A DNA stretch of 21,026 nt from a virus. The notes under the pieces are model-generated. The model was not told where the DNA came from, did no database searches, and worked only from the letters and a program-made list of their open reading frames with translations. Made by a program: the position numbers and the translations under genes. Location of the stretch: the IMG/VR virus record IMGVR_UViG_3300001686_000035, positions 1 to 21,026 of that record. The stretch is one strand, 5' to 3'. This document shows positions 7,934 to 20,339 of this stretch, one piece after another; the stretch's first letter is position 1, and every line of letters begins with the position of its first letter.

Positions 7934-8873
7934 GCCGACGTACAACAGCGTGATCTCACGCTCCGATGTGCAGGCGCTCGTCCCCGAGCAGGTGTCGACC
8001 GCCATGCTCGCGAGCGTCGCCTATCAATCGGCGGCGTTGTCGCTGTTTCGACGCGTGCCGATGTCGACGAACCAGACGCGCATGCCCGTGCTCGCCGCGC
8101 TGCCCATCGCGTACTTCGTCGGCGGCGATACCGGCCTGAAGCAGACGACGAAGGCCGCATGGGACAACAAGTTCCTCAACGTCGAAGAGATCGCCGCCAT
8201 CGTGCCCATCCCCGAGGCGGTGCTCGACGACGCGACGTTCGACGCGTGGGGTTCAGTGCAGCCACTGCTCGAGGCAGCGATCGCGCAGAAGCTCGACGCG
8301 GCCGTGCTGTTCGGCGTCACGAAGCCGGCGAGCTGGCCGACCGACATCGTCACCGCAGCACGAGCGGCCGGCAATGAGATCGACCGCGGCTCAGCGACAG
8401 CCGCTGAAGGCGGCATCGTCGAGGACTTCAACATGCTGTACGCCCTCGTCGAAGAGGGCGGCTTCACCCCGAACGGCGTGATCGCTCGCACCGCAGTCAA
8501 GGCGCGTCTGCGCGGCGCACGTGACACGACCGGCCAAGCGCTCGCTGATCTGTCAGCCGGCACGATCTGGGGCGACCCTCTGCGCTTCGTCGTCCCCGGC
8601 GGCTGGCCTACCGCAGCGAGCGGCGCAGCCGAAGCGATCGCCGGTGACTTCAATCAGGCGATCCTCGGCGTGCGCCAGGACATCACGTACAAGGTGCTCG
8701 ATCAGGCGTCGCTCACCGACGACGCCGGTGTCGTCATCTTCAACCTGCCGCAGCAGGACATGGTCGCGCTGCGCGTCGTCGCCCGCTACGCCTACCAGGT
8801 CGCCAACCCGATCAATTACGAGCAGCCGAGCGAGGCCGCCCGCTTCCCGTTCGCCGTTCTGTCGGCGCCCTGA
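7932..8873 (+). CDS. Major capsid protein (HK97 fold)
   Basis: The main shell protein, 313 residues, within the normal range for the HK97-fold family. The sequence has the family layout: an N-terminal arm ending in AALSLFRRVPM, a beta-rich E-loop area (residues 50-75, with MPVLAALPIAYFVGG), the spine-helix region beginning VPIPEAVLDDA, and a C-terminal P-domain with repeated beta strands. The GTG start at 7932 is supported by an AGGAGG eight bases upstream. No N-terminal scaffold is fused on, since a separate scaffold gene precedes it. Order portal, MuF, scaffold, capsid is standard. The chainmail cross-link residues cannot be judged from sequence alone. Confidence 0.93.
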   Translation: MPTYNSVISRSDVQALVPEQVSTAMLASVAYQSAALSLFRRVPMSTNQTRMPVLAALPIAYFVGGDTGLKQTTKAAWDNKFLNVEEIAAIVPIPEAVLDDATFDAWGSVQPLLEAAIAQKLDAAVLFGVTKPASWPTDIVTAARAAGNEIDRGSATAAEGGIVEDFNMLYALVEEGGFTPNGVIARTAVKARLRGARDTTGQALADLSAGTIWGDPLRFVVPGGWPTAASGAAEAIAGDFNQAILGVRQDITYKVLDQASLTDDAGVVIFNLPQQDMVALRVVARYAYQVANPINYEQPSEAARFPFAVLSAP

Positions 8874-10697: not shown

Positions 10698-11237
10698 GTG
10701 CCAGCGAACCTTGACGCCATCGTCGTCGGGCAATTCGGTCATGTGCTGTACGCACCTATCGGCACCGCCGCGCCGGTCGATGCCACCACCGCGTTCGGGG
10801 TCGGCTGGGTCGACCTCGGCACGATCTCAGAAGACGGTCTCGAAGTCGCCAGCAACGAGGACACGAGCGACATCAAGCAGTGGGGCGGCGGTGTCGTACG
10901 CAAGCTCATCACCTCGTCTGAGTTGACGTTCAAGTTCATCTGCTTGGAGTCGACGGTCGGCGCCGTCGAGCGCTACTTCAAGACGACGATCGACACCACC
11001 GCCGGCAGCATCGACGTCGGCCGCGCCGTGCGCGACCCGATGATGTGGGGCTTCGACATCATCGACGGGTCGACGCACTATCGCTACCTCGTCGACAACG
11101 GCGAAGTCAGCGCCCGCGAGAACATCACCTACAAGGCCGACACCGCAGCGTCGTTCGGGCTCACCGTCACCGCCTATCAGGACGACCAAGGCGTCGCCGC
11201 CGTGCTGCTGTCCGACGCGACGTACTGGGGGCCGTGA
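10698..11237 (+). CDS. Major tail protein (tail tube)
   Basis: Tube subunit, 179 residues. AGGAGG at 10687-10692 precedes the GTG start. The protein opens with a Val-Gly-Gln-Phe-Gly-His loop and has WVDLGTISEDGLEVASNED, the conserved strand-loop of actinophage tube proteins, and an ELTFKFICLESTVGAVERYF segment. YLVDNGEVSARENITYKADTAASFGLTVTAY is the usual C-terminal beta sandwich. There is no Ig-like C-terminal extension. Position between terminator and the G/GT chaperones and tape measure is canonical. Expected to be among the most abundant virion proteins. Confidence 0.92.
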   Translation: MPANLDAIVVGQFGHVLYAPIGTAAPVDATTAFGVGWVDLGTISEDGLEVASNEDTSDIKQWGGGVVRKLITSSELTFKFICLESTVGAVERYFKTTIDTTAGSIDVGRAVRDPMMWGFDIIDGSTHYRYLVDNGEVSARENITYKADTAASFGLTVTAYQDDQGVAAVLLSDATYWGP

Positions 11238-15833: not shown

Positions 15834-16282
15834 GCGGCTTCATGTACTTCAGCGGCTTTGACGCCTGGGCCGATTGGACGAGCGCGGCGCACGAGTGGCT
15901 GCTGCTCGGCGATATAGGGGCGTTCACCGCGACAGATGACAACGTGAGCGACATCGTCACGACTGAGCTGCTCGTCGCCGGGTATGCCCGCATCACGGTC
16001 GCCAACAAGGTCGACGACGATCAGGTCAGCACGTACTACAACAGCCGCAGCTACGGCGCCGACCCGCCCGTGTTCAGCGGGCTCGCGGCCGGCAAGTACA
16101 TACAAGCGCTCGTGCTCGCGGAGACAACAGGGCGCTTGCTCGCGTTCTGGGACGTGCAGCAGCCGAGTGACGTCGGCACGCTCGCGCTGAACTTCGCGAC
16201 GTACACCGCGGATAACGGTGACCCGCTGCCCAGCGCCGGGCCGAACACGCAGATGATCCACCAGCAGCAGGCGAGAGCGTGA
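15830..16282 (+). CDS. Small tail-associated protein B
   Basis: 150 residues, GTG 15830 overlapping the previous stop (GTGA). Features seen: aromatic N-terminus (GFMYFSGFDAWADW), then NVSDIVTTELLVAGYARITVANKV, a YGADPPVFSGLAAG segment and the YIQALVLAETTG strand. The NVSD turn, the AGY...TV strand and the ADxxxF step occur in the same order as in the preceding protein, so the two may be diverged duplicates. Its C-terminus is polar (Gln-rich). No catalytic motif. Probably a tail structural protein by position. Confidence 0.65.
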   Translation: MSGFMYFSGFDAWADWTSAAHEWLLLGDIGAFTATDDNVSDIVTTELLVAGYARITVANKVDDDQVSTYYNSRSYGADPPVFSGLAAGKYIQALVLAETTGRLLAFWDVQQPSDVGTLALNFATYTADNGDPLPSAGPNTQMIHQQQARA

Positions 16283-18159
16283 CGGCGATCAACGTCACGA
16301 CGCTGCGCACGTCGCTCGAACTGTATATCGGCACGACGGCGTACGCGCAGACGTTGTACGTCGCACCGGTCGAGCGTCGCCCCGATTTGCCGGGCGTGCT
16401 CATCACGAAGCCGGGCGAGGTCATCCCGCCGTTGCGGCTCACACTGCGACATCGTTACGACCCGTGGGCCGCCGTCGTCGAGTTCGATCAAGGCAAGGAC
16501 TATCGCTGGCAGGATCAGCTCAACGAAGCGGGCGCCGGTTCGCTCGTGCTGGCGAACGACGACCCTGATCTAGCGTTGGTGCAAGCAGGCGACGTCGTGC
16601 TCTTCGAGGTCGAAGGCTTCGGGGCGTTCACGCTGCTGGTGCGCGAGATCGATCGCACAACGATCGCGACAGGCGAAGAGGCCGCGCAGCTCTCGACGCT
16701 GTCAGGACCGGGCGGGCTGGCGTATCTCGAAGAAGCGCTCGTGTACCCAAGTCGAGGCGTCGGCGTCTGGCCGATCGAAGAAGACCGAGTGTTCTCATGG
16801 CCGAGCGTCGACTACGACGACAGCTGGTGGACGAGCGTGCACGCGTACGCATCGGTCTACGACTCGACACCGGCGTGGTACGGCATGATCGACGGCTGGC
16901 CGCTAGCGCTGCCGGCGCAGTGGATCGGCCCGAGCGTCGGATCGAGGCACTGGGCACCGGGCGGGACGTGCTATCTGCGCTCGACGTTCGACGCGTTCAC
17001 GACCGGCACCTACACGATTTATCTCGCTGCTGACGACTTCGCGACGCTGTATCTCGACGGGCAGCAGCTGTTGAGCACCGACGAGTGGAGCAACGACCCG
17101 AACGACGTCAAGAAAGAACAGGTCGACATCACGGCCGGCGAGCACAGTCTGGCGGTCGAGCTGCACAACGGCTTCGGTGAGATCATTTACGAAGGCGGAC
17201 GGTTCAACCCGGCCGCGATCGTCGTCGGCGTGGCAACGCTCGACGGTGCAGGTGCGATCGCTGAGGTCGCGACGGTCAGCGACAACAGCTGGCGCATCTT
17301 GGAGTATCCGCTCAACGCGCCGGGCATGACGCCGGGCGAAGCCATGCTCATCTGCATCAACGAAGCACGCGACCGCGGTGCACTGCCTGAGATCGGCGCG
17401 ACGTTCGATGCGCGCGTCGACTCGGCGGGCCAGCCGTGGCCGATCGTCGGTGACATCGCCACGAAGACCGGCTACGACCTGCTGACGTTCTTTCGTGAGC
17501 TGTCGCAGACGTACATCGATCTGGCGATGAGCCCCGCCGGCAACGTGCTGTACGCGTGGGCGAGCGGCACACGCGGCGAGCATCGCTCGATCACGCTGCA
17601 CGCGCCGAGCGACGCGAGCGACCCGAACAGCGGCAATCTCGTGCAGCTCACGCACAAGCGCGTCCTCGCGCCAGTCGAGCGTCTGCTCGTGCGCTGGAAG
17701 TCGGGGTGGGATCAGCTCGGCAACAACGGGCGCGAAGCGTGCTTAGGGCTCGGCGCTGATCAATCGCAAGGCGAGATCGAACGTGTCGGACAAGCGCAGC
17801 TCGACGACATCAACAACGTACGCACAGAGATCGCCGCGCAGATCGCCCCGATGGGACCCGACGACACACCGGTGCTGGCGTTCAACATCGGTGATTATCT
17901 CGACGTGCCTGACGTCGACAACATGTTCGTCGAGCGACGCGTGATCTCCCTGTCGGGGGCGCTCGACGACAACGGGCGGCTCAGCTGGGCGATCGAGCTA
18001 GGCGATCGCATACTCGACGTGCGCGAGCGCGTCGAGCAGGCAGCGAAGAAGATGATCAACGGCACGCTACGCGGCTCGTCGAAGGTCGCCACCCCGGTCG
18101 CGCTCGTGCCGAAGCGCAACGTGCCGATCGATCGCGGCGGAGGGGGTTGCGGAGGATGA
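16279..18159 (+). CDS. Minor tail (tail-tip) protein with carbohydrate-binding-like insert
   Basis: 626 residues; GTG 16279 overlaps the previous stop. Residues 1-160 and about 345-600 resemble the Siphovirus ReqiPepy6 gp37-like tail protein, probably part of the baseplate hub. Between them, about 165-345, is a jelly-roll domain like those of rhamnosidase-type enzymes: PAQWIGP at 212-218, YLRSTF at 232-237, YLAADDFATLYLDGQQL at 248-264, the TAGEHSLAVELHN strand near 285-297, then NPAAIVVGVATL and a SDNSWRI turn at 334-340. These are the known order of elements in galactose-binding-like modules. The likely role is adsorption to host glycans. The C-terminus is Gly-rich (DRGGGGCGG). Confidence 0.83.
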   Translation: MTAINVTTLRTSLELYIGTTAYAQTLYVAPVERRPDLPGVLITKPGEVIPPLRLTLRHRYDPWAAVVEFDQGKDYRWQDQLNEAGAGSLVLANDDPDLALVQAGDVVLFEVEGFGAFTLLVREIDRTTIATGEEAAQLSTLSGPGGLAYLEEALVYPSRGVGVWPIEEDRVFSWPSVDYDDSWWTSVHAYASVYDSTPAWYGMIDGWPLALPAQWIGPSVGSRHWAPGGTCYLRSTFDAFTTGTYTIYLAADDFATLYLDGQQLLSTDEWSNDPNDVKKEQVDITAGEHSLAVELHNGFGEIIYEGGRFNPAAIVVGVATLDGAGAIAEVATVSDNSWRILEYPLNAPGMTPGEAMLICINEARDRGALPEIGATFDARVDSAGQPWPIVGDIATKTGYDLLTFFRELSQTYIDLAMSPAGNVLYAWASGTRGEHRSITLHAPSDASDPNSGNLVQLTHKRVLAPVERLLVRWKSGWDQLGNNGREACLGLGADQSQGEIERVGQAQLDDINNVRTEIAAQIAPMGPDDTPVLAFNIGDYLDVPDVDNMFVERRVISLSGALDDNGRLSWAIELGDRILDVRERVEQAAKKMINGTLRGSSKVATPVALVPKRNVPIDRGGGGCGG

Positions 18160-18740
18160 TCCATCTCTTCTGGCACGACAACGCACCGAACGACGCGCTG
18201 AGGGACGCGGCCGTGCGCTGGGCTGAGCACAACCCGAGTGAGATCGTGCAGGTCTGGTCACTCGACGATCTGCCGGCGACGTTGCGCGCCGTTGCGCTCG
18301 GCTCGCTTGAACGCATCGACGAGCACGATCATCGGCGTCATCTCGGCAACATCGCTCGCTGGCACCTGCTGGCAACGTACGGCGGCGTCTGGGTTGACGT
18401 CGACACCTACCCGCTGAAGGCGTTGCCGCGTCACTACGTCGATCGAGCGCCACCGTGGAGCGCCGCACGCGGCACGACACCGACACCGTTCGTGTGCGGC
18501 GGTGCCCCGCACTCGCTCTGGCAGCGAGCACTCACGAGCGCACTCGCCGGTAGCGGGGCGAGCCCTGACGCGAGCGGCGGGCGCATGCTCGCTCGCATCG
18601 CTCATCCGACCGAGCTGCGACTCGTGCCGAACGCGTACTTCGCGTCGCACGACTCCGCTGGCCACCAGCTCGTCGCCCCGAGCGAAGGGCGCGTGTGCAC
18701 GCATCGTTGGGCGACATCATCGACGAGAGGACCTTCATGA
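18156..18740 (+). CDS. Glycosyltransferase with DXD motif (GT32-like)
   Basis: A compact 194-residue enzyme that probably transfers a sugar from a nucleotide-sugar donor. The N-terminus MIHLFWHDNAPND and the NPSEIVQVWSLDDL strand match the opening of the Gly_transf_sug family (IIHQIW..., nP..y.lW). NIARWHLLATYGGVWVDVD (65-83) contains the metal-binding DVD at 81-83. The C-terminal VPNAYFASHD and THRWATSS (182-189) match the family's end, where a His-x-Trp-x-x-Ser closes the fold, so the gene looks complete. ATG 18156 was chosen over a TTG nine bases earlier because it overlaps the preceding stop and begins at the family's conserved start. Acceptor unknown: tail proteins, host wall or intracellular targets. 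Confidence 0.88.
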   Translation: MIHLFWHDNAPNDALRDAAVRWAEHNPSEIVQVWSLDDLPATLRAVALGSLERIDEHDHRRHLGNIARWHLLATYGGVWVDVDTYPLKALPRHYVDRAPPWSAARGTTPTPFVCGGAPHSLWQRALTSALAGSGASPDASGGRMLARIAHPTELRLVPNAYFASHDSAGHQLVAPSEGRVCTHRWATSSTRGPS

Positions 18741-19909
18741 GCGACGGGTGGCTGCGCAACGGCAAGTACGAGCATCTGTCGATCGGCAGCTGCACCGGAC
18801 CGGGCACGCAGTACGACGGCTACGCGTGGAAGTTCGTGCTGCACAGCACCGAGTCGCCGCCTGGTTCGATCGCCGGCATCAATTCGCTGTTCAGGGCGCG
18901 CCCGTGCAGCGCACCGCACTTCACGATCGACCCGGCCGGCACGCAGCGACGCGTGCAGTACATCCCGTGGACGCAGGCCGCGTGCGCTCTCAAGGGCGCG
19001 CGCAACGGCTGGCAGACGAATCGGGGCCGCGCTGTGCAGATGGAGATATGTGGCTACGCCAACGATTCGCCGCACTGGGACGACGCGACGCTCTGGCAGA
19101 TCGCTGACGTCATCGCTGACGTCATACGCGACGGCTGTCCGATCAACCCGCACAACGTGCATGACTTCACGCAGTTCGAGGGCGTGCTCGCCACCGAGAC
19201 GGCGCGACAGCGCATGAGTCCGTCGGGTTACCAGCACTTCGACGGCATCACCGCACACCTTCAGGTCCCATTCAACGATCACTGGGACACGGGGCGCATG
19301 CGCTCGCTCGACGTCGCACGCATGACGCGGGAGATCCTCGGCGGCGCCGGCTACGTGCTCGGCCCGCCCGGCGCCGGCACGCCCGGCAGCTCGGGCGACG
19401 TGCAGGTCGACTTCATGCAACAGGGCATGGCGGGCGGCCAAGTGCAGCTGCTGCAGCAGGCGCTCATCGGGCTCGGCTACGACTGCGGCAGCTCAGGCGC
19501 TGACTCGATGTTCGGGCCGGCAACCGAGGGGGCCGTCAGAGCGTTCCAGAGCGCTTCTGGGCTCGCTGTCGACGGGATAGCTGGGCCAGTCACTCAACAA
19601 GCGCTGCAGAGCGCCTACGCCGCTCTGAGAGCGTCTCCGACCCCGCCGGCACCGCCCGGCCCCGGCAGCGACGTCCCGAACTGGCCGGGTCGCTTCCTCG
19701 TGCTCGCTCAGCCGATGCTCAGCGGCGACGACGTACGCACGTGGCAGCAGCGCATGAGCGATCGAGGCTGGCGTCTCGGCGTCGACAGCTGGTTCGGGCT
19801 GGAGAGCTACGGCGTCGCCAAGACGTTTCAAGCTGAGAAAGGTCTGACAATCGACGGCGTCGTCGGGCGACAGACCTGGAACGCGGCATGGACGGCGCCG
19901 ATCTCATGA
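18737..19909 (+). CDS. Endolysin: N-acetylmuramoyl-L-alanine amidase with two peptidoglycan-binding repeats
   Basis: Cuts the bond between muramic acid and the stem peptide to release progeny. 390 residues from ATG 18737, which overlaps the glycosyltransferase stop. Residues 25-200 are a type 2 amidase (PGRP fold): FVLHST with H36, APHFTID, AVQMEICG with E103, and ITAHLQVP with H174 plus HWDTG (D184) as the zinc ligand set. A glycine/proline linker follows (205-222). Two peptidoglycan-binding domains complete it: about 232-292 (LLQQALIGLGYDCG, FGPATEGAVRAFQ) and about 325-387 (DDVRTWQQRM, FQAEKGLTIDGVVG). No signal peptide is visible, so it should need a holin. No mycolylarabinogalactan esterase is in the window. 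Confidence 0.95.
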   Translation: MSDGWLRNGKYEHLSIGSCTGPGTQYDGYAWKFVLHSTESPPGSIAGINSLFRARPCSAPHFTIDPAGTQRRVQYIPWTQAACALKGARNGWQTNRGRAVQMEICGYANDSPHWDDATLWQIADVIADVIRDGCPINPHNVHDFTQFEGVLATETARQRMSPSGYQHFDGITAHLQVPFNDHWDTGRMRSLDVARMTREILGGAGYVLGPPGAGTPGSSGDVQVDFMQQGMAGGQVQLLQQALIGLGYDCGSSGADSMFGPATEGAVRAFQSASGLAVDGIAGPVTQQALQSAYAALRASPTPPAPPGPGSDVPNWPGRFLVLAQPMLSGDDVRTWQQRMSDRGWRLGVDSWFGLESYGVAKTFQAEKGLTIDGVVGRQTWNAAWTAPIS

Positions 19910-20133
19910 GCGCCCCGGCTGACGTGCGCGATCGCGTCATGTGGCTGTTCGCGCTCATCGCCGGTGTGCTGCTCGTGCTCGCTGTCGTCGCCATCGCGCT
20001 CATCGCCATACTGCAGCCCGAGGCTGATCTCAGCGAGCTGGGCAAAGCCGTCAGCACGCAGCTGTCGTTGATCGTCGGCGCAGTGCTCGGCTACGCCGCT
20101 CGCGGCCCCTCGAGCGAGAGCGACCGCACATGA
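19906..20133 (+). CDS. Small membrane protein, holin candidate 1
   Basis: 75 residues from ATG 19906, overlapping the endolysin stop (ATGA); an in-frame ATG 18 bases earlier also exists but lies inside the endolysin gene. One strong transmembrane segment (about 12-36, WLFALIAGVLLVLAVVAIALI) and a second moderately hydrophobic stretch (about 50-65, LSLIVGAVLGYAA). Charged, basic N-terminus (DVRDR) and a polar, Ser-rich C-terminus. Gene position directly after the endolysin fits a holin or antiholin. No family signature separates these roles. Confidence 0.7.
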   Translation: MSAPADVRDRVMWLFALIAGVLLVLAVVAIALIAILQPEADLSELGKAVSTQLSLIVGAVLGYAARGPSSESDRT

Positions 20134-20339
20134 GTTGGCAGAGCGACGACACGCAAGAGCAGCCGATCCCGGTGCTCGTGACGTCGACCCCTGAGCGGCT
20201 CAGCGACCGACGCCTGTTCGTGCTCGTCATGCTCGTCACGTTCGTCGTCGGCTCGATCATCGTCTTCGTCGGCACCTACAGCATGGCGACGGCGTTCGAT
20301 CGAGTCTCGGTCACCCCCAATTGCCGGGAGGTCAAGTGA
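20130..20339 (+). CDS. Small single-pass membrane protein
   Basis: 69 residues, ATG 20130 overlapping the previous stop. Residues 1-28 are polar and carry LVTSTPERLSDRR, then one transmembrane segment at about 29-50 (LFVLVMLVTFVVGSIIVFVG), then a short tail with one Cys near the end. Positive charges just before the segment suggest an N-in orientation. It could be an antiholin, a holin partner or a spanin-like membrane factor, but nothing in the sequence decides this. Supported as a gene by overlaps on both sides. Confidence 0.68.
   Translation: MSWQSDDTQEQPIPVLVTSTPERLSDRRLFVLVMLVTFVVGSIIVFVGTYSMATAFDRVSVTPNCREVK

What the first reader, a model, noticed from the sequence alone, without database searches (positions are those of the whole stretch)
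18156..18740. Glycosyltransferase in the late operon between tail tip and endolysin
A complete but compact GT32-like enzyme, overlapping its neighbours by four bases on both sides, is made with structural and lysis proteins. Timing points to glycosylation of virion proteins (for example tail or capsid) or late changes of the host surface that block re-adsorption. Next to a glycan-binding tail-tip gene, this suggests a sugar-based adhesion or escape system: the phage could alter the receptor its own tip recognises. This link is a hypothesis.
Basis: inference. Interest (0 to 1): 0.62.

Follow-up and report, generated by a model that had tools for sequence, protein, structure and literature searches.

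The report
Lone sugar-transfer gene in phage operon
An uncultured actinobacteria-type phage carries, wedged between its tail-tip and cell-wall-lysis genes, a full-length but very divergent sugar-attaching enzyme whose nearest phage relatives sit beside capsid genes in a recurring gene set that includes relatives of a proven virion-glycosylating enzyme.

Summary
Confirmed: 18156-18740(+) encodes a 194-aa glycosyltransferase (GT) with ATGA overlaps to the tail-tip gene upstream and the lysin downstream. Pfam PF04488 matches exactly at its cut-off; an HMM of 19 viral relatives built without it gives E 8e-25, and its AlphaFold model matches GT-A enzymes including Och1 (GT32). Closest phage relatives lack it, so it is accessory. 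It is not a textbook copy: longest branch in the family tree, three conserved positions changed. New context: GT32 relatives recur in actinophage-type contigs as a cassette of GT32, often an FkbM methyltransferase, and a Che8-gp110-like enzyme (gp110 is essential for capsid glycosylation). An independent gp110 search gave 80 loci, 49 with GT32, against 0 of 49 control loci. In 15 of 30 testable cassettes a major-capsid gene lies just upstream, and 16 of 20 cassette capsids end in Ser, as do Che8's capsid and tail tube. The window lacks the partners, and its capsid and tube end in Pro, so Che8-type capsid-end glycosylation is not expected there. Best reading: an orphaned, fast-evolving virion-glycosylation-type GT with another acceptor; host-surface change or decay remain open. 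The tip 'pairing' is not supported: GT-less relatives share the tip core.

The parts
18156..18740 (+). Glycosyltransferase, GT-A fold, PF04488/GT32-type, 194 aa; DXD = D81-V-D83, C-terminal His183-Arg-Trp185
18139..18159 (+). Junction: Gly codons of the tail gene (GGAGGGGG) form a Shine-Dalgarno-like sequence about 9 nt before the ATG; ATGA stop-start overlap 18156-18159
   Evidence: sequence read directly; no special RNA fold (z 0.39)
18737..18740 (+). ATGA overlap of GT stop and lysin start, with a GAGAGGA-type ribosome site before it
16279..18159 (+). Tail-tip/minor tail protein, 626 aa, sub-threshold PA14 match at residues 241-285; ends at a Gly-rich tail (GGGGCGG), where relatives continue with further C-terminal domains
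18737..19909 (+). Endolysin, amidase-like plus peptidoglycan-binding domains; 67% identical relative in L030, whose phage has no GT upstream
19888..20133 (+). Small membrane protein, holin candidate (by position and hydrophobicity only)
   Evidence: inference
20130..20339 (+). Small membrane protein, holin candidate (by position and hydrophobicity only)
   Evidence: inference
7932..8873 (+). Major capsid protein (HK97-type); ends in Pro, lacking the C-terminal Ser of most cassette phages and of Che8
10698..11237 (+). Probable tail tube protein (position; relatives in L005, L010, L049); ends in Pro
   Evidence: assignment by gene order is inference

Best explanation
The gene is an accessory, late-operon glycosyltransferase of the kind actinophages use to decorate their own particles. 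Late in infection ribosomes finishing the tail-tip gene probably restart at the overlapping ATG, so enzyme is made with virion and lysis proteins (overlap shown, coupling inferred). The GT-A enzyme would hold a metal-nucleotide-sugar through D81xD83 and probably H183 and pass one sugar to an acceptor (fold and residues shown, activity inferred). The most likely acceptor is a phage protein or a sugar already on it, because its relatives are built into cassettes with FkbM methyltransferases and homologues of Che8 gp110, an essential capsid glycosyltransferase. In this phage the enzyme is an orphaned, fast-evolving form. Since its capsid and tail tube lack the C-terminal Ser seen in cassette phages and in Che8, its acceptor is probably another virion protein, or it works with a partner encoded outside this 21-kb fragment.
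For: GT-A fold and family; PDB matches include fungal Och1 (9n3s, E 1.9e-5) and the PBCV-1 capsid glycosyltransferase (2p72, E 5e-4). Best protein matches of the window GT are mostly cassette GT32s (L049, L141, L050, L051; one plasmid enzyme outside the cassettes, L040, ranks among them). A tree holding it inside the cassette clade is as likely as the free tree (p-AU 0.50), while a control row held there fits 43.5 log units worse (p-AU 0.055). Cassette: 10 of 11 high-GC viral GT32 loci with enough flank (my count from the listing) have a gp110-like gene within about 6 kb. Independent search from the gp110 side: 49 of 80 loci with GT32 and 32 of 80 with FkbM, against 0 of 49 control loci. Dereplicated: 41 cassettes, GT32 upstream of gp110 on the same strand in all, FkbM in 24, major-capsid gene within 2.5 kb upstream in 15 of 30 testable. 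The partner is phrog_854 glucosyltransferase and matches Che8 gp110, E 4e-29; Che8 gp110 and Corndog gp38 are called essential for capsid glycosylation in PMC12363180. Cassettes near tail or lysis genes also exist: phiM2, N. salina, phiAsp2 without GT32.
Against: The window has no gp110-like or FkbM gene. Capsid and tail tube end in Pro. Conserved positions are changed: W29 to E (W in 19 of 19), D65 to N (D in 18 of 19), N111 to P (N in 14 of 18). It is the longest branch of the tree (3.13, median 0.48). Association is with the family, not with this gene; no expression or glycan data exist.
Confidence: 0.45

Rival explanations
1. Host-surface modification: the enzyme adds a sugar to a teichoic acid, glycolipid or other envelope glycan late in infection (or in lysogens), reducing re-adsorption of progeny or superinfection.
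For: PF04488 and Caps_synth-type enzymes often act on surface polysaccharides (general knowledge; sub-threshold Caps_synth match). N. salina prophages have a relative behind endolysin and holin near the end of the viral contig, a usual place for conversion genes. Position beside a host-contact gene. Capsid and tail tube lack the terminal Ser.
Against: No flippase or membrane-anchored partner seen in the window. The N. salina copy also has a gp110-like partner. High-GC relatives mostly group with gp110-like genes, often beside capsid genes.
Confidence: 0.25
2. Decaying or non-catalytic remnant: a cassette GT moved to this site by recombination, whose enzymatic activity is being lost; kept for lack of time or for spacing and translational coupling of the lysin.
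For: Substitutions at W29, D65 and N111, a shortened C-terminal part, the longest branch in the tree, no partners.
Against: Intact frame, DXD, R68 and HxW kept, normal codon usage, confident GT-A model. Asn at the D65 position also occurs in L065.
Confidence: 0.2
3. Tip-receptor system: the enzyme changes the very receptor glycan that the neighbouring tip recognises.
For: Adjacency and translational overlap; weak PA14 match.
Against: Same tip core in GT-less phages; family relatives are often next to capsid genes; PA14 below cut-off.
Confidence: 0.07

Closest known systems
Virion glycosylation of mycobacteriophages Che8 / Corndog / Myrna (Freeman et al. 2023, Cell Host Microbe 31:1216, read only through PMC12363180, PMC11256854, PMC11600133)
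   Same: Phage-encoded glycosyltransferase in an actinophage-type genome; family relatives of the window GT occur in operons with homologues of Che8 gp110
   Different: The window GT is PF04488-type, not gp110-type; Che8 gp108-110 do not match the GT32 HMM; no gp110-like partner in the window; capsid and tube lack the terminal Ser
PF04488 / GT32 glycosyltransferases (e.g. fungal Och1, PDB 9n3s)
   Same: GT-A fold, DXD, IHxxW start, GGV(Y/W)xDxD core
   Different: 194 aa, no membrane anchor seen; 9% identity to Och1 in the fold match; conserved Trp29, Asp65 and Asn111 changed
Microbacterium phage Magritte gp6 (annotated glycosyltransferase)
   Same: Nearest named isolate-phage relative (E 0.03 by tblastn, 29.6%); Magritte also has a related tail protein
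   Different: In Magritte it lies far from the tail genes, near the left end, with a UDP-glucose dehydrogenase and a second GT
Lysogenic-conversion glycosyltransferases (gtr-type)
   Same: Phage GT able in principle to alter host surface
   Different: No membrane GtrA/GtrB-like partners seen; GT is inside the late operon, not by an att site (inference from the window; fragment only)

Membership tests
PF04488 (Gly_transf_sug) | Score at or above the curated cut-off of 23 bits | tested here: met
   23 bits as printed, at the cut-off of 23; family HMM of relatives without the window protein 78 bits
GT-A fold, DXD glycosyltransferase | GT-A fold with metal-binding DXD | tested here: met
   pLDDT 80, Foldseek matches to GT-A enzymes; D81 and D83
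GT32-type catalytic core | Conserved Trp (HPxW), Asp of DxxR, Asn of NxxxG motif | tested here: not met
   E29, N65, P111 in the window; W 19/19, D 18/19, N 14/18 in relatives
Che8-type virion glycosylation | gp110-family (phrog_854) glycosyltransferase encoded | tested here: not met
   None in the 21-kb window; the contig is a fragment, so absence from the phage is not shown
Che8-type virion glycosylation | Capsid and tail tube ending in an acceptor-type Ser | tested here: not met
   Window MCP ends LSAP, probable tube ends YWGP; Che8 both end in GS. That Ser is the acceptor is inference
Che8-type virion glycosylation | Glycan shown on virion proteins | not testable with these tools
   Needs mass spectrometry
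GT32-FkbM-gp110 late cassette described here | GT32 next to a gp110-like gene | tested here: not met
   Window GT is solitary; tree placement inside the cassette GT32 clade not rejected, p-AU 0.50
Lysogenic conversion gene | Expression in the lysogen / position beside att site | not testable with these tools
   No integrase or att site recognised in this fragment

The most novel reading that the evidence does not exclude
The solitary GT has become a tail-tip-specific enzyme: the tip lost the distal domains that its relatives carry after a Gly linker, and the GT that took their place in the operon glycosylates the remaining tip (for example its Gly/Cys-rich end), so that a sugar replaces or masks a receptor-binding domain.
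Probability: 0.07. Interest if true: 0.75.

Novelty: new variant of a known kind. Interest (0 to 1): 0.5.

Why it matters
Glycosylation of phage particles is documented in few phages. The comparison forced by this gene gives a genomic signature that can be scanned for and tested: a GT32, often FkbM, and gp110-like cassette, often directly behind the major capsid gene, with capsids that mostly end in Ser. That predicts many uncultured actinobacterial phages with sugar-coated virions, relevant to phage recognition and phage therapy. The window gene itself is a useful outlier: a lone, diverged member at the tail-tip/lysis junction whose acceptor is unknown.

Tried and rejected
Single-sequence searches for relatives in viral contigs, genomes and phages found none. 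phmmer against PDB gave only chance hits. A -1 frameshift fusion of tip and GT was considered: the GT frame is open 81 codons upstream and there is a GGGGG run, but no strong slippery heptamer and no unusual RNA fold; rejected as unsupported. Recent foreign import by codon usage: not seen. C-terminal Ser as a marker that separates cassette from non-cassette capsids: 16/20 against 5/8, not significant (p 0.37), so it marks capsids against other proteins of the same loci (6/163, p 8e-15) but not cassette presence. Overall Ser/Thr content of capsid ends: no clear difference (0.215 against 0.182). Corndog and L5 records under the accessions tried were not held. The structural-gene seeds used came partly from GT32 loci, so the lower structural counts in GT32-less gp110 loci are biased and not used.

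Full report
WHAT IS THERE. The window is the whole of a 21,026-base uncultured viral record, probably a fragment. All main genes are on the + strand: terminase small subunit, ParB-like, large terminase, portal, capsid, connectors, probable tail tube, chaperone, tape measure, small tail genes, tail tip, GT, lysin, two small membrane proteins. Structural relatives are actinophages: portal relatives in Nocardia, Rhodococcus, Gordonia and Mycobacterium phages, tip relatives in Microbacterium, Arthrobacter and Curtobacterium phages. The ORF 18156-18740 is real, 194 aa, with ATGA overlaps on both sides. The Gly codons at the end of the tip gene supply a GGAGGGGG sequence about 9 nt before the GT start.

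WHAT THE PROTEIN IS. Pfam PF04488 is hit exactly at its cut-off. A profile made from 19 viral relatives without the window protein scores 78 bits, E 8e-25. The AlphaFold2 model (pLDDT 80, pTM 0.80) matches GT-A glycosyltransferases in PDB: SetA, YeGT, Och1, glycogenin, the PBCV-1 capsid GT. In the viral library the best hit is a DXD glycosyltransferase of an uncultured Caudovirales phage, E 6e-11, TM 0.75. Kept: H3, W6, W22, P27, W34, R68, G76-G77-V78, D81, D83, G115, G141, F162, H183, W185. Changed: W29 to E, D65 to N, N111 to P. Donor and acceptor cannot be told from this.

IT IS ACCESSORY. The 67%-identical lysin in L030 has another small gene before it. The longest close relatives (contigs of 29-37 kb behind L006, L010, L011) have no PF04488 and no match. 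In the relative G009/L035 the tip continues after its Gly linker with a further domain and then runs straight into a different, GH25-like lysin (lysin type read by eye). Huwbert gp52, KellEzio gp35 and Shrew gp64 are also longer than the window tip (953, 1704 and 1170 against 626 aa). So the GT stands where relatives encode distal tail-tip domains. The tip core that carries the weak PA14 match is common to these GT-less phages, which speaks against a dedicated tip-GT pair.

A RECURRING CASSETTE. A profile search gave 23 viral GT relatives. Most of the high-GC ones share a block: GT32, an FkbM or other SAM methyltransferase, and a third protein without Pfam match. The third protein is phrog_854 'glucosyltransferase' and is homologous to Che8 gp110 (E 4e-29). 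PMC12363180 states that Che8 gp110 and Corndog gp38 are essential for capsid glycosylation. To avoid searching from one side only, I searched viral contigs with the gp110-like alignment: 80 loci kept, 49 with GT32, 32 with FkbM; 49 control loci (relatives of the window portal and tip) had none of the three. After dereplication there are 41 cassettes; GT32 precedes gp110 on the same strand in all; a major-capsid gene lies within 2.5 kb upstream in 15 of the 30 where it could be seen. Cassettes near tail or lysis genes also exist: Streptomonospora phage-plasmid phiM2 and Nocardiopsis salina prophages, in the order tail, endolysin, holin, GT32, gp110-like. Actinoplanes phage phiAsp2 has tail genes followed by a GT2-like gene, a methyltransferase and a gp110-like gene, without GT32.

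CAPSID ENDS. Che8 capsid ends FNKTGS and its tail protein SDGS; from memory, Freeman et al. placed the glycans at the C terminus of these proteins. Of 20 dereplicated capsids in cassette loci 16 end in Ser, against 6 of 163 other proteins in these loci (p 8e-15). Capsids of GT-less window relatives also often end in Ser (5 of 8), so the sign is not specific to loci with a visible cassette. Muddy's capsid and tail protein do not end in Ser. The window capsid ends LSAP and its probable tube YWGP; the close relatives L005 and L010 also lack the Ser. This predicts that the window phage is not decorated in the Che8 manner.

WHERE THE WINDOW GENE BELONGS. In an 84-protein tree nearly all cassette GT32s group together (42 of 43 rows, SH-aLRT 91), and the window GT is the longest branch, 3.13 against a median of 0.48. 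Holding it inside the cassette clade costs nothing (p-AU 0.50), while forcing a control row in costs 43.5 log units (p-AU 0.055). Descent from a cassette GT is allowed, not shown.

CONCLUSION. Shown: intact late-operon GT-A/PF04488 gene, accessory, divergent, solitary in this fragment; family-level association with a capsid-glycosylation enzyme. Inferred: translational coupling, activity, virion acceptor. I give 0.45 to virion-directed glycosylation with a non-Che8 acceptor, 0.25 to host-surface change, 0.2 to decay, and 0.07 to the tip-receptor system.

Noticed in passing
2447-5086 (+), insert about 2684-3661: Large terminase carries an intein of about 325 aa inserted in the Walker A motif (GWGK / S): starts AGALDTPVPTPQGW (Ala first), contains LAGLIDADG_3 (E 1.6e-5), ends THN before Ser. 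Relatives L003, L005 and L010 have the uninterrupted region. An Ala-start intein is unusual.
   Followed up: partly
L049, L050, L051, L054, L055, L056, L068-L071, L085, L092, L113-L191: GT32, FkbM/SAM methyltransferase and Che8-gp110-like cassette, often directly behind the major capsid gene, in many uncultured viral contigs.
   Followed up: yes
capsid genes of L049, L055, L069, L071, L085, L120-L177 and others; Che8 L192:5051-5872: Major capsid proteins end in Ser (often -GS or -AS) far more often than other proteins of the same loci (16/20 against 6/163): possible C-terminal glycan acceptor signature.
   Followed up: partly
L056:236-6429 and L092:1-5357: Nocardiopsis salina prophages: tail phosphodiesterase-like protein, endolysin, holin, GT32 and gp110-like gene near the end of the viral contig; could be conversion genes.
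   Followed up: partly
L074:2909-8366: Gaiellaceae metagenome bin contig with four GT32-like genes in a row.
   Followed up: no
L035:5137-7439 (- strand): Tip gene of the close relative G009 is split over two frames near 6171-6192, possibly an assembly error.
   Followed up: no
1008-2450 (+): ParB-like N-terminal domain protein between the terminase subunits (sub-threshold ParB_N); phiM2 also has a ParB-like gene upstream of its structural genes.
   Followed up: no
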